Below are positions 27,301 through 35,921 of a DNA stretch of 64,000 bases, piece after piece. Position numbers and translations under genes: made by a program. How positions within the stretch are numbered: position 1 is the first letter of the stretch; each line of letters opens with the position of its first letter. The notes below the pieces were generated by a model. The model was not told the origin of the DNA. It ran no database searches and worked only from the letters and a program-made list of their open reading frames with translations. Origin of the DNA: Oscillospiraceae bacterium (lineage in GTDB: Bacteria; Bacillota; Clostridia; Oscillospirales; Oscillospiraceae); assembly GCA_009784725.1 (NCBI GenBank), contig WQXS01000002.1, positions 62,001 to 126,000 of the forward strand, in the 5' to 3' direction.

Positions 27301-27309
27301 TGATACAAT
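27301..27309 (+). promoter_or_regulatory. Extended -10 promoter element TGaTACAAT upstream of the YidC-TagF fusion gene
   Basis: Sequence TGATACAAT in the short gap between divergent genes. Confidence 0.5.
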
Positions 27310-27343
27310 CAACCGGTAAAAAATGCAAGAAGGAATACGCTCC

Positions 27344-29230
27344 ATGGGTATTATTGACTTAATTTTCGGTACATTTTTTGGTTTCATAATGTATTTTTGT
27401 TATGTCATTACCGGTAATTTCGGCTGGGCAATAGTTGTGTTTACCGTTATTGCAAGAATTGTTTTATTCCCGATAGCCCTTATTTCACAAAAAAATTCAA
27501 TAATAATGGTAAAAATCCGGCCCGAGCTTGCTGATTTACAGGCACGCTACGAGGGTGAAACGGATACTCTTATCAAAGAGCAAAGAGCATTATACAAGAG
27601 AGAAAAATACAGCACATTAAAAGCTCTGCTTCCGCTTCTTCTTCAAATCCCAATAATAATCGGAGTAATAAGTGTTGTTAATAACCCGGCAAGACACCTT
27701 GGAGACGATGTAAACCGTTTCTTTTTCGGAGCCGATATGTTCGCTCTCCCTGAAAACTTTCTGATTCCCGCTCTTGCAATTCTTTCGACACTTCTGCTTT
27801 GCATAGTGCAAAATAAATATAATGTAATCTCAAGAGAGCAGGGTTTTATAGGAAAATGGGGAGTCTCTGTTTTCCTTGTTATTTTTACGGGATGGTTCGT
27901 ATTTGTCGTTCCCTCAGGCGTGGGACTTTACTGGACTTACAGTAATGCAGCAGGCATAATTGTTCTTGCAATATGTAACATGATATATAATCCGGCAAAG
28001 TTTATTGATTATGAAAACCGTTCGGTAAAACACCGTAAAACAGCGGATGAAAAAAAGGCAGACCGCTTAAAAAGAAAACAGGAAAAAGAGCGTGAAAAGA
28101 CCGATATGCAGCGTTTTTTCAGTGAAGAAAAAGAACTTGTTTTTTACTCGGAAGCAAGCGGTTTCTATAAATATTTCAGTTTTTTTATTGATTATATTCT
28201 TGATAACTCCGATATAACCGTGCACTATCTGACATCGGATATAAACGACCAAATTTTCAAAATAAATAAACCCCGCTTTAAATCATACTTCTGCTCGGCA
28301 CATGGAATGATAACCGCTTTTATGAAAATGGATTGCGGTATTCTTGCAATGTCAATGCCGTCTTTGGAGACTTACCAGTATAAACGTTCTATTGTTAAAA
28401 AAGATATTGAATATATTTACATCGAACACGGTATAGGCAGCTACCACCTGACACACCGAAAAGGTGCGGTTGACCATTACGATACAATTTTCTGCTACAG
28501 TAAAAATAATAATGAAGAAATACGCAATTCAGAGCAGGTTTACGGACTTCCCGAAAAAAAGCTTGTTAATGTCGGCTTCGGACTGCTTGATTTACTGATA
28601 AAAAACTACGCCGTGATGGATAAGAAAACCAAAGAGAAACCGCAGATTTTAATAGCTCCGTCCTGGCAGATAAATAATATTCTTGAATACTGCCTCCCAC
28701 CGCTGCTTGAAGACCTGTTTGCTATGGATGTTAATGTAATTATCCGCCCGCATCCGGAATTTATAAAACGTTTCCCCGGAAAAATGAAAGCTTTAAATGA
28801 AAAGTATTCTACTTATATCGGCAGCAATCTGGAAATTGAAACCGACTTTTCATCAAACGAAACAGTTTTCACATCTGATCTTATAATCACCGACTGGTCA
28901 AGCATTGCACAGGAATTTTCGTTCACAACAAAAAAACCCTCTCTATATATAAACACCCCGATGAAAGTCATGAACCCCGAATGGAAGAAAATAAACGTAG
29001 AACCAATGGAAATATGGATAAGAAATAAAATCGGCATCGCAGTTGAACCCGAAGAGCTCGGTGACACACAAAATATAGTCCGTGAGCTACTCGATAACAG
29101 CGATAAATACAAAACTGCAATCGAAGAAATAATATCCGAATACATGTACAACACCGGAAACGCAGCAGAAACCGGCGGGAAGTATATAATTGATGAAATA
29201 ATAAAAAGAAGAAATTTGCGCTCTGAGTAG
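27344..29230 (+). CDS. YidC/Oxa1 membrane insertase domain fused to CDP-glycerol glycerophosphotransferase (TagB/TagF) domain
   Basis: N-term: FGWAIVVFTVIARIVLFPIALISQKNSIIMVKIRPELADLQARYEGETDTLIKEQRALYKREKYSTLKALLPLLLQIPIIIGVI (YidC). C-term: YIYIEHGIGSYHLTHRKGAVDHYDTIFCYSKNNNEEIR, IAPSWQINNILEYC, IIRPHPEFIKRFP, LIITDWSSIAQEFSFTTKKPSLYINTPMK (TagF). ATG 27344 has an AAGGA RBS (ORF track starts at 27323). Confidence 0.9.
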   Translation: MGIIDLIFGTFFGFIMYFCYVITGNFGWAIVVFTVIARIVLFPIALISQKNSIIMVKIRPELADLQARYEGETDTLIKEQRALYKREKYSTLKALLPLLLQIPIIIGVISVVNNPARHLGDDVNRFFFGADMFALPENFLIPALAILSTLLLCIVQNKYNVISREQGFIGKWGVSVFLVIFTGWFVFVVPSGVGLYWTYSNAAGIIVLAICNMIYNPAKFIDYENRSVKHRKTADEKKADRLKRKQEKEREKTDMQRFFSEEKELVFYSEASGFYKYFSFFIDYILDNSDITVHYLTSDINDQIFKINKPRFKSYFCSAHGMITAFMKMDCGILAMSMPSLETYQYKRSIVKKDIEYIYIEHGIGSYHLTHRKGAVDHYDTIFCYSKNNNEEIRNSEQVYGLPEKKLVNVGFGLLDLLIKNYAVMDKKTKEKPQILIAPSWQINNILEYCLPPLLEDLFAMDVNVIIRPHPEFIKRFPGKMKALNEKYSTYIGSNLEIETDFSSNETVFTSDLIITDWSSIAQEFSFTTKKPSLYINTPMKVMNPEWKKINVEPMEIWIRNKIGIAVEPEELGDTQNIVRELLDNSDKYKTAIEEIISEYMYNTGNAAETGGKYIIDEIIKRRNLRSE

Positions 29231-29271
29231 AGCACCAATAATAGTTAATTAATAATAAAATTAAATCAAAT

Positions 29272-29332
29272 AAGACTTGACTTTGTTCATTTTAGGATTT
29301 ATAATCGCCAATATGAACAAAAGGGAAGTCTT
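29272..29332 (+). promoter_or_regulatory. Strong sigma-A promoter (TTGACT 29277-29282, 17-bp spacer, TATAAT 29300-29305) embedded in an imperfect ~20-bp inverted repeat
   Basis: Left arm AAGACTTGACTTTGTTCAT (29272-29290), right arm ATGAACAAAAGGGAAGTCTT (29313-29332). Confidence 0.75.
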
Positions 29333-34355: not shown

Positions 34356-34372
34356 AACCTCAACATAAAAGT

Positions 34373-34397
34373 GCTCGCCCCCACTTTGGGGGCGAGC
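34373..34397. terminator. Perfect 10-bp GC-rich hairpin between convergent genes
   Basis: GCTCGCCCCC-ACTTT-GGGGGCGAGC. Confidence 0.8.
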
Positions 34398-34418
34398 AAA
34401 TTATTATTTAGGGGTTTT

Positions 34419-35921
34419 TTATCCTATCCAGGTTCCATCTGTGCGGAAGCTTCGAGCCACTCCGCCTAAGAAAAGGGTTACATTTTGTGCCATTGTTCCG
34501 TTGGCTTGGAAGTAATACCAGTTGCCTCCATCAAACAGCCAGTCATTCATTATCATTTGTCCGTTAGCACGCAGGTAGTACCAATGTCCGTGCGATAACC
34601 AACCTGTTTGCATTGCACCTGTGCTGTGGTGCAGGTAGTACCAGTAACCACCATCAAATACCCAGCTTGTTTGTCTTACTCCGTTAATAACATAATACCA
34701 TGTGTTGCCTTCAAGTACCCAGTTACCGCCGGCGCTTTGTGTGCTTCCGGATCCGGTGCTGCCGCCGCCGGTTGGTGCTGAAGAACCGCCGCTGACTGAT
34801 CCTGTCCATGCACCGGTGGCATTAAATCTGTTTAATACTCCGTCGGGTGTAGTGAAGTCACCTGTTACCATTCTTCCGTTAGGTAGAAGGAAATACCAGT
34901 TGCCTCCCCAAAATACCCAGTTATTTGTTACCATTACGCCGGATGGACCAAAGTAATACCAGAAACCGCCCAGAAGCAGCCAATCTGCTTCCATTCCTCC
35001 GAAATCATGAAGGAAATATGTTCCTGTATCAAGGGTAAGCCAACCCGTTTGCATAACACCGTTAGCATTAAAGTAGTACCAAATATTATCAACTGCGCGC
35101 CATCCTATTGCCATAACGCCGTTTAGAAAATGATACCAAACATTATCCTCAAAATACCAACCGTTAAATCTATCGACAGCTTGACCCTGCCAAACACCGT
35201 TTCCGTCAAAATCCTGCCTGCTGCCATTTATAGTAACAGTTCCGGTAGCCATAATTCCGGTTGTCGGATTTAAGTAATAACGAGCATTGCCTATTGAAAT
35301 CCAATCAGTAAGCATCGCTCCTGTTGACGGATGGAAATAATACCAGTGAGCTCCGATTTGTGTCCAACCTGTCGCCATAATTCCATTGTCGTGCAGATAA
35401 TATCTTGTTGCACCCTGATTATGCCAACCTGTAGCCATTCTTCCTGAATCGGGTATTAAATAAAACCAGGATCCATCAATAAGATGCCAACCAAACTGTA
35501 AGCTACCGTTTCTATAATAATACCATATATCATTTTGCTGAAACCAGCCGTTTCTGACATTTGCCATTTGTGAAAACAACCTGCCATTACTGCCAAAAAC
35601 ATAACTTACACCGTCAATAACTAATGAACCTGTTGCCGCTACACCGTTTGCATGGAAAAAATACCATCCTCCATTAATGAACTGCCATCCTGTTGCCATT
35701 ACTCCATTAGCCGGATTGAAGTAAAACCAACTTCCTCCAATTAGATGCGGGCCACCTTTTAACATCTGACTACTTTCATAATAGACCCATGAATTGCCTT
35801 GTCTTTCCCAGCCGGTCACCGGTGATGCAGGTGCCGCAGATGCAACAGGCACTACCATTGCCGTCAGCAGTACCAGCACAATTGCGAGACTAATCAGCCT
35901 CTTTGATCTCATCTTCATCAT
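34419..35921 (-). CDS. Secreted protein composed of choline-binding/cell-wall-binding-type repeats
   Basis: 500 aa; signal peptide MMKMRSKRLISLAIVLVLLTAMVVPVASAAP followed by ~20 repeats such as GWQFINGGWYFFHANGVAATG, split by a GGSSAPTGGGSTGSGSTQSAGG linker. Confidence 0.9.
   Translation of the reverse strand: MMKMRSKRLISLAIVLVLLTAMVVPVASAAPASPVTGWERQGNSWVYYESSQMLKGGPHLIGGSWFYFNPANGVMATGWQFINGGWYFFHANGVAATGSLVIDGVSYVFGSNGRLFSQMANVRNGWFQQNDIWYYYRNGSLQFGWHLIDGSWFYLIPDSGRMATGWHNQGATRYYLHDNGIMATGWTQIGAHWYYFHPSTGAMLTDWISIGNARYYLNPTTGIMATGTVTINGSRQDFDGNGVWQGQAVDRFNGWYFEDNVWYHFLNGVMAIGWRAVDNIWYYFNANGVMQTGWLTLDTGTYFLHDFGGMEADWLLLGGFWYYFGPSGVMVTNNWVFWGGNWYFLLPNGRMVTGDFTTPDGVLNRFNATGAWTGSVSGGSSAPTGGGSTGSGSTQSAGGNWVLEGNTWYYVINGVRQTSWVFDGGYWYYLHHSTGAMQTGWLSHGHWYYLRANGQMIMNDWLFDGGNWYYFQANGTMAQNVTLFLGGVARSFRTDGTWIG

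What the first reader, a model, noticed from the sequence alone, without database searches (positions are those of the whole stretch)
27301..35921. Self-contained phosphocholine-type decoration island with its own choline-binding repeat protein
A plus-strand block inside a minus-strand glycan locus encodes a teichoic-acid-type transferase, choline kinase + cytidylyltransferase (LicA/LicC fused), a second kinase, a second nucleotidyltransferase and a BCCT transporter. It converges on a secreted protein made almost wholly of choline-binding-type repeats. In pneumococcus and related species, lic genes decorate teichoic acid with phosphocholine and choline-binding proteins dock on it. Here uptake, activation, possible transfer and reader protein are contiguous, which predicts one modular surface-display system. 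No LicD-like transferase was recognised in the window.
Basis: partly seen in the sequence, partly recalled or inferred. Interest (0 to 1): 0.8.

Follow-up and report, generated by a model that had tools for sequence, protein, structure and literature searches.

The report
Choline island with insertase-fused phosphotransferase
A gut-type bacterium carries genes to take up and activate choline beside an unusual enzyme that fuses a membrane-protein insertase to a teichoic-acid-type transferase; this fusion recurs next to either choline or phosphonate activation genes in many bacteria and probably attaches these small charged groups to surface sugars in place of the usual enzyme, LicD.

Summary
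The block is real. It is followed by a wHTH-LicC-LicA enzyme, a divergent kinase, a putative nucleotidyltransferase and a BCCT transporter. The genome has no LicD, and its housekeeping yidC is elsewhere. In 80 named loci the fusion neighbours choline-kinase genes (29) or phosphonate genes (23), with only 1 locus holding both (p=7e-5, uncorrected); 17 of 21 scanned choline-type carriers lack LicD. They are often fused to each other, and four YidC-less relatives of the transferase carry the hairpin instead.

Best explanation: a LicD-independent, membrane-anchored phosphocholine transferase, one branch of a wider phosphocholine/aminoethylphosphonate tailoring cassette. Activity is untested. The choline-binding-repeat protein is a plausible reader: such repeats track LicC-LicA in this family (6/7 versus 7/144 genomes). 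Its adjacency is rarely conserved (1/80 fusion loci, plus one genome without the fusion), so 'self-contained display island' is only partly supported. No description was found in the papers searched.

The parts
27323..29230 (+). YidC/Oxa1 insertase domain fused to a TagF-like (PF04464) CDP-alcohol phosphotransferase domain, 635 aa; proposed LicD-independent phosphocholine transferase
   Evidence: Pfam PF02096 and PF04464; AlphaFold model pLDDT 88.8; Foldseek to TagF/capsule polymerases and to YidC; His362, His470, T-D-W-S motif invariant in 66 homologues, groove Lys/Arg in 65 of 66
29277..29305 (+). sigma-70-like promoter (TTGACT-17-TATAAT) before the LicC-LicA gene
   Evidence: consensus match only
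29339..31111 (+). wHTH - LicC (CTP:phosphocholine cytidylyltransferase) - LicA (choline kinase) fusion, 590 aa
   Evidence: wHTH on 23 of 32 LicC-LicA fusions in the loci
31113..32063 (+). second, divergent choline-kinase-like protein
   Evidence: PF01633 25.2 bits, below cut-off; homologues only in three metagenomic clusters
32075..32884 (+). putative second nucleotidyltransferase, orphan family
   Evidence: N-terminal motif by eye only; no Pfam or credible PDB match; two homologues besides itself
32877..34355 (+). BCCT transporter, probable choline/betaine-type uptake
   Evidence: PF02028 335 bits; nearest PDB DddT and choline transporter
34372..34398 (.). bidirectional terminator-like hairpin between the convergent genes
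   Evidence: 12 bp, 9 GC pairs, found on both strands
34419..35921 (-). protein with signal-peptide-like N-terminus made of choline-binding-type repeats, 500 aa; candidate phosphocholine reader
   Evidence: PF19127 / PF01473; the only PF19127 protein in the genome; co-occurrence test
35975..36003 (-). perfect 12/12 sigma-70-like promoter of the repeat gene
   Evidence: consensus match only
40694..42637 (-). AP-superfamily membrane enzyme (LtaS/EptA/GacH-like fold, conserved Thr), cassette partner
   Evidence: PF00884; homologue near the fusion in 59 of 80 loci; conserved N, D, T, D-H; AlphaFold pLDDT 87.4; Foldseek includes LtaS, PbgA/YejM, MCR-1
42644..42970 (-). small YIDPATT membrane-hairpin protein, cassette partner
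   Evidence: homologue in 69 of 80 loci, fused to the AP-superfamily enzyme in 31; same hairpin fused to YidC-less transferases in L008, L009, L010, L012

Best explanation
The block takes up choline (BCCT), phosphorylates it (LicA), makes CDP-choline (LicC), and uses the YidC-TagF-like fusion as a LicD-independent, membrane-anchored transferase that places phosphocholine from CDP-choline onto the glycan made by the surrounding rhamnan-type polysaccharide locus, on the cytosolic side. The secreted repeat protein then docks on that phosphocholine. The fusion belongs to a wider cassette (transferase + YIDPATT hairpin + LtaS/EptA-like enzyme) that in relatives is paired with either choline or aminoethylphosphonate activation. 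Shown here by sequence: gene content, both domains, intact conserved motifs, absence of LicD, recurrent neighbourhood. Inferred: substrate, acceptor, direction of transfer, docking of the repeat protein.
For: Fusion domains: Pfam, confident AlphaFold model, Foldseek hits to TagF+CDP-glycerol, Actinobacillus capsule polymerases and YidC; His362, His470 and the TDWS motif invariant in 66 homologues. LicD absent from the genome and from 33 of 50 scanned carriers, including 17 of 21 choline-type carriers. 80 loci: choline kinase in 29, phosphonate genes in 23, both in 1 (Fisher p=7e-5); the labels choline/phosphonate change 5 times on the fusion tree, so one transferase family is repeatedly paired with one or the other zwitterionic head group. 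Contiguous fusion-LicA-LicC-BCCT in G010 and fusion-hairpin-LicA-LicC in G125. In-genome contrast: the other PF04464-like gene adjoins a CTP_transf_like gene of the TagD kind, the fusion adjoins LicC-LicA. No PEP mutase above cut-off in this genome, so choline rather than phosphonate. LicC half nearer to phosphocholine LicC (145 bits) than to PntC (43 bits). Choline-binding repeats track LicC-LicA.
Against: No biochemistry. PF04464 enzymes with a demonstrated substrate use CDP-glycerol/ribitol or make capsule backbones (own knowledge), so phosphocholine/AEP transfer would be a new specificity. 29 of 80 loci show neither head-group pathway within 9 kb (8 of these have a nucleotidyltransferase hit; some are contig ends). 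Four choline-type carriers also have LicD. Counts are not corrected for relatedness. Choline-binding-type repeats also bind glycans (top PDB matches are clostridial toxin repeats), and among carriers they are not commoner in the choline type (6/21) than in the phosphonate type (9/13).
Confidence: 0.6

Rival explanations
1. Lipid relay: the fusion moves phosphocholine (or aminoethylphosphonate) from its CMP-activated form to a membrane lipid; the YidC half, whose family can scramble lipids, helps carry the loaded lipid across; the LtaS/EptA-like enzyme, docked through the YIDPATT hairpin, then transfers the head group to the glycan outside.
For: Recurrent co-localisation of fusion, hairpin (69/80) and AP-superfamily enzyme (59/80); hairpin fused to the AP enzyme in 31 loci and to YidC-less transferases in four others; AP enzyme keeps a Thr at the nucleophile position and the D-H pair, with LtaS, MCR-1 and YejM among its fold matches; E. 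coli YidC scrambles lipids in vitro (PMC10491306); groove positive charge kept in 65/66.
Against: No lipid intermediate is known; LtaS/EptA-like enzymes may simply add glycerol phosphate or ethanolamine phosphate from ordinary phospholipids; 21 of 80 loci lack a nearby AP enzyme, though it could lie elsewhere in the genome.
Confidence: 0.2
2. The fusion is an ordinary glycerol- or ribitol-phosphate transferase and is next to the lic genes only because both belong to envelope loci; phosphocholine is transferred by an unrecognised enzyme.
For: PF04464 is named for CDP-glycerol transfer; TagF with CDP-glycerol is the second best fold match.
Against: Repeated, largely exclusive pairing with choline or AEP activation and switches on the tree; the same genome has another PF04464-like gene paired with a TagD-like cytidylyltransferase.
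Confidence: 0.1
3. Choline genes feed something else (for example a phospholipid), and the repeat protein is a glycan-binding surface protein unrelated to choline.
For: Repeat proteins of this class also bind oligosaccharides (toxin repeat matches); adjacency of repeat protein and lic block is rarely conserved.
Against: Block lies inside a polysaccharide locus with RgpF, rml genes and Bac_transf; repeats co-occur with LicC-LicA (6/7 vs 7/144) and adjoin them in G090.
Confidence: 0.08

Closest known systems
licABCD phosphocholine pathway (Streptococcus pneumoniae, Haemophilus influenzae)
   Same: choline uptake, choline kinase, CTP:phosphocholine cytidylyltransferase, decoration of a surface glycan, and choline-binding repeat protein
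   Different: no LicD; LicC and LicA fused with a wHTH; transferase candidate is a YidC-PF04464 fusion; BCCT transporter
Pnt aminoethylphosphonate tailoring with PntC (Rice et al. 2019, PMC6697681)
   Same: cytidylyl activation of a small zwitterion for surface glycans; the YidC fusion occurs beside Ppm, Ppd, PhnW and PntC-type genes in 23 of 80 loci
   Different: this window is the choline branch; a text search of that paper found no YidC or TagF-like transferase, LicD-like enzymes being mentioned
TagF/TarL and capsule polymerases (PF04464)
   Same: fold, His residues and T/SD-[YW]-S motif; CDP-alcohol donor expected
   Different: fused to YidC; paired with LicC/PntC-type rather than TagD-type activation
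YidC/Oxa1 insertase (SpoIIIJ, BhYidC2)
   Same: complete transmembrane core with the groove positive charge
   Different: C-terminal enzyme; second copy beside the housekeeping rnpA-yidC-jag gene; insertase activity unknown
LtaS / EptA / GacH AP-superfamily transferases
   Same: multi-TM membrane enzyme with outer catalytic domain, conserved Thr and metal ligands
   Different: carries or adjoins the YIDPATT hairpin and travels with the YidC-transferase; substrate unknown

Membership tests
licABCD phosphocholine decoration system | choline kinase and CTP:phosphocholine cytidylyltransferase | tested here: met
   1JYK 145 bits, 4R77 93 bits
licABCD phosphocholine decoration system | LicD (PF04991) transferase | tested here: not met
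   0 matches in the whole genome
licABCD phosphocholine decoration system | phosphocholine present on surface glycan | not testable with these tools
   needs choline labelling or TEPC-15 staining
CDP-glycerol glycerophosphotransferase family (PF04464) | sequence and fold | tested here: met
   29.4 bits vs cut-off 22.1; Foldseek TagF 4.7e-8
CDP-glycerol glycerophosphotransferase family (PF04464) | conserved His and TD-x-S motif | tested here: met
   invariant in 66 rows; equivalence to TagF catalytic residues is from own knowledge, not a residue-level superposition
CDP-glycerol glycerophosphotransferase family (PF04464) | CDP-glycerol as donor | not testable with these tools
   neighbourhood points to CDP-choline / CMP-AEP
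YidC/Oxa1 insertase | PF02096 core and groove positive charge | tested here: met
   110 bits; Lys/Arg in 65 of 66
YidC/Oxa1 insertase | membrane-protein insertion activity | not testable with these tools
   needs complementation
choline-binding protein | choline-binding-type repeats and export signal | tested here: met
   PF19127 202 bits; signal-like N-terminus by eye
choline-binding protein | binds choline rather than another glycan | tested here: inconclusive
   co-occurs with LicC-LicA in the family, but among carriers not commoner in the choline type
LtaS/EptA-type AP-superfamily transferase | fold plus conserved Thr and metal-ligand residues | tested here: met
Pnt phosphonate tailoring | PEP mutase in the genome | tested here: not met
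   one weak hit below cut-off

The most novel reading that the evidence does not exclude
The YidC fold has been repurposed as a lipid- and glycan-handling platform: the fusion loads phosphocholine or aminoethylphosphonate onto a lipid at the cytosolic face, the YidC groove passes the loaded lipid across, and the YIDPATT-docked LtaS/EptA-like enzyme decorates the glycan outside, so that one trans-envelope machine couples activation, flipping and transfer.
Probability: 0.13. Interest if true: 0.9.

Novelty: new variant of a known kind. Interest (0 to 1): 0.68.

Why it matters
LicD is the known phosphocholine transferase, and the steps that follow CMP-activation of aminoethylphosphonate on the way to bacterial surface glycans are still to be worked out (PMC6697681 presents PntC as setting the stage for that). 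A fusion found beside both pathways, mostly in genomes without LicD, is a concrete candidate for both transfer steps. It is usually auto-named 'membrane protein insertase YidC', so this chemistry may be overlooked in gut and termite-gut Bacillota, Actinomycetota and Treponema. It also suggests that the YidC fold has a job beyond protein insertion.

Tried and rejected
Literature: searches combining YidC with CDP-glycerol glycerophosphotransferase/phosphocholine, Glyphos_transf, and glycosyltransferase domain/teichoic acid returned nothing; YidC with phosphocholine alone returned insertase papers, where phosphocholine is presumably a lipid reagent. The bifidobacterial teichoic-acid survey PMC12286996 does not mention YidC or choline.

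Kinase 2 and nucleotidyltransferase 2 could not be placed: only 3 and 2 homologues besides themselves. Fusion P0022, kinase-2 homologue P0126 and nucleotidyltransferase-2 homologue P0123 all list a longest contig of 8280 bases, so they may share one contig; not verified.

Considered and rejected: misassembly (the same fusion architecture in most of the 120 best hits); the fusion being the housekeeping yidC (that gene sits in rnpA-yidC-jag on contig 43); phosphonate specificity in this genome. No tRNA and no Rfam match in the window. LicC aromatic-box and Asp105/192 residues read from the 1JYK alignment are only partly kept, so LicC specificity was not called from residues. A first exclusivity test was one locus short and was redone.
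Full report
WHAT IS THERE. The key correction is gene 1. It is not only a teichoic-acid-type transferase: its first ~230 residues are a complete YidC/Oxa1 domain (PF02096, 110 bits) and the rest is a PF04464 CDP-glycerol-glycerophosphotransferase-type domain (29 bits over a cut-off of 22). A 66-sequence AlphaFold model is confident (mean pLDDT 88.8), and Foldseek matches the two halves to TagF with CDP-glycerol and capsule polymerases, and to B. 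halodurans and E. coli YidC. Two histidines (His362, His470), the TDWS motif, and R348 are invariant in all 66 homologues. The groove position that carries the conserved positive charge of YidC proteins is Lys or Arg in 65 of 66 (the charge is described in PMC8920935). Gene 2 is a winged helix, then LicC, then LicA. Gene 3 is a divergent choline kinase-like protein, gene 4 an orphan with only a nucleotidyltransferase-like motif read by eye, gene 5 a BCCT transporter. Genes 2-5 are tightly packed (gaps of 1 and 11 bases and one overlap). LicC-LicA and the repeat gene each have a near-perfect sigma-70-like promoter, and a 12-bp bidirectional terminator-like hairpin separates the convergent genes.

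THE GENOME. The window is part of a 2.77 Mb, 98.4% complete assembly. It has no LicD (PF04991) match and no PEP mutase above cut-off. The only PF19127 repeat protein is the one in the window. Its housekeeping yidC is a separate gene in the usual rnpA-yidC-jag setting (jag named by eye). It has one other PF04464-like gene, next to a CTP_transf_like gene of the TagD kind. So within one genome the two PF04464-type transferases sit beside different activating enzymes. The surrounding minus-strand locus holds RgpF, rmlA-D-type genes, a Bac_transf, an UDP-GlcNAc 2-epimerase and glycosyltransferases, that is, a rhamnan-type surface polysaccharide locus; heptose-type genes near 20-23 kb were recognised by eye only.

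RELATIVES OF THE FUSION. The fusion is widespread: most of the 120 best of 2317 protein hits carry both Pfam domains, and a pattern scan of 85,488 species genomes confirmed 340 relatives of the query, of which 80 loci were kept, from Bacillota, Actinomycetota, Spirochaetota and one bin named Fibrobacter. Many of the nearest look like termite-gut bins, by isolate names. In the window's own family it is patchy: about 6 of 151 genomes carry the fusion, plus one genome of the same genus (G112) with the transferase but no YidC half in that open frame.

NEIGHBOURHOOD. Profiles built here were searched against all reading frames within about 9 kb of the fusion in the 80 loci. Choline kinase (LicA, or LicC-LicA) was found in 29, phosphonate genes (Ppm, Ppd, PhnW, PntC-aminotransferase) in 23, both in only 1, neither in 29; 8 of the last group still have a nucleotidyltransferase hit. 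Fisher p for the exclusivity is 7e-5, not corrected for relatedness. On a tree of 81 fusions the choline/phosphonate label needs 5 changes, so the same transferase family has been paired with either head group several times. Contiguous sets include fusion-LicA-LicC-BCCT (G010, L117) and fusion-hairpin-LicA-LicC (G125, L119). LicD is absent from 33 of 50 scanned carrier genomes, among them 17 of 21 choline-type carriers; these are mostly MAGs, so absence is soft.

A ~100-residue protein with a conserved YIDPATT-like motif between two hydrophobic stretches was found in 69 of 80 loci, and a multi-TM AP-superfamily (PF00884) enzyme in 59; in 31 loci they are one protein. In the window they are 42644-42970(-) and 40694-42637(-). 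The enzyme keeps a threonine at the nucleophile position (T302, over 90%) and invariant Asp and Asp-His residues, as in LtaS and EptA and unlike Cys/Ser sulfatases (own knowledge). Its model (pLDDT 87.4) matches the AP superfamily, including LtaS, YejM/PbgA and MCR-1; LtaS is not the top hit and sulfatases score similarly. Four transferases of the same family that lack YidC (L008, L009, L010, L012) begin with the same YIDPGTGS hairpin. The hairpin is thus fused to the transferase in some genomes and to the AP enzyme in others, which links all three parts (Rosetta-stone inference).

THE REPEAT PROTEIN. Its repeats match pneumococcal choline-binding proteins, but its best PDB matches are clostridial toxin repeats, a class that binds glycans, so sequence alone does not settle the ligand. 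In the window's family, genomes with a strong LicC-LicA fusion have over-cut-off PF19127 proteins in 6 of 7 cases against 7 of 144 others (p=8e-7, uncorrected; two genera contribute two genomes each). In G090 a repeat protein directly follows BCCT-LicC-LicCA. But only 1 of 80 fusion loci has a repeat protein nearby, and among scanned carriers repeats are no commoner in choline-type (6/21) than in phosphonate-type genomes (9/13). A choline-reading role is plausible; a fixed uptake-to-reader module is not.

MECHANISM. Best supported: choline enters through BCCT, LicA and LicC make CDP-choline, and the fusion, whose enzyme domain follows the YidC core and a strongly basic linker and so should be cytosolic, transfers phosphocholine to the lipid-linked glycan; the decorated glycan is exported and may be read by the repeat protein. 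Genes, motifs, LicD absence and association are shown; substrate, acceptor and reader binding are inferred. A bolder variant is a lipid relay to the outside via the AP enzyme, made conceivable by the report that E. coli YidC scrambles lipids in vitro (PMC10491306).

NOVELTY. The chemistry (phosphocholine or AEP tailoring through cytidylyl activation) is known (PMC6697681). The transferase architecture and the three-part cassette were not found in the papers searched, which cover open-licence papers only. I file it as a new variant of a known kind.

LIMITS. MAG incompleteness, contig ends, uncorrected relatedness, no residue-level superposition on TagF, single-chain models only, and no biochemical data.

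Noticed in passing
window 29339-31111 and 23 of 32 LicC-LicA fusions in the loci: A winged-helix domain precedes the LicC-LicA enzyme, and every other hit of that domain profile in the loci is also on a LicC-containing protein; possibly a self-regulating (trigger) enzyme.
   Followed up: partly
L120 (G112:C3), same genus as the window: Transferase with no YidC half in its 391-aa frame, next to the small hairpin, Ppm, a nucleotidyltransferase and Ppd: a phosphonate version of the locus in a sister species.
   Followed up: partly
L125 (G000:C13:46000-55642), 3806-7563: A second PF04464-like protein (863 aa) beside a CTP_transf_like domain fused to a GFO/IDH/MocA oxidoreductase in one open frame.
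   Followed up: no
window 32075-32884 and 31113-32063: Two orphan genes with only 2-3 homologues each in about 5.8 billion proteins, although embedded in a conserved block.
   Followed up: partly
L029, L024, L025, L067: Two or three tandem copies of the AP-superfamily enzyme next to the fusion.
   Followed up: no
window 18734-20179, 8260-9690, 12569-13981: Several B12-binding radical-SAM-type proteins inside the polysaccharide locus; the last two by Pfam, the first by eye; role unknown.
   Followed up: no
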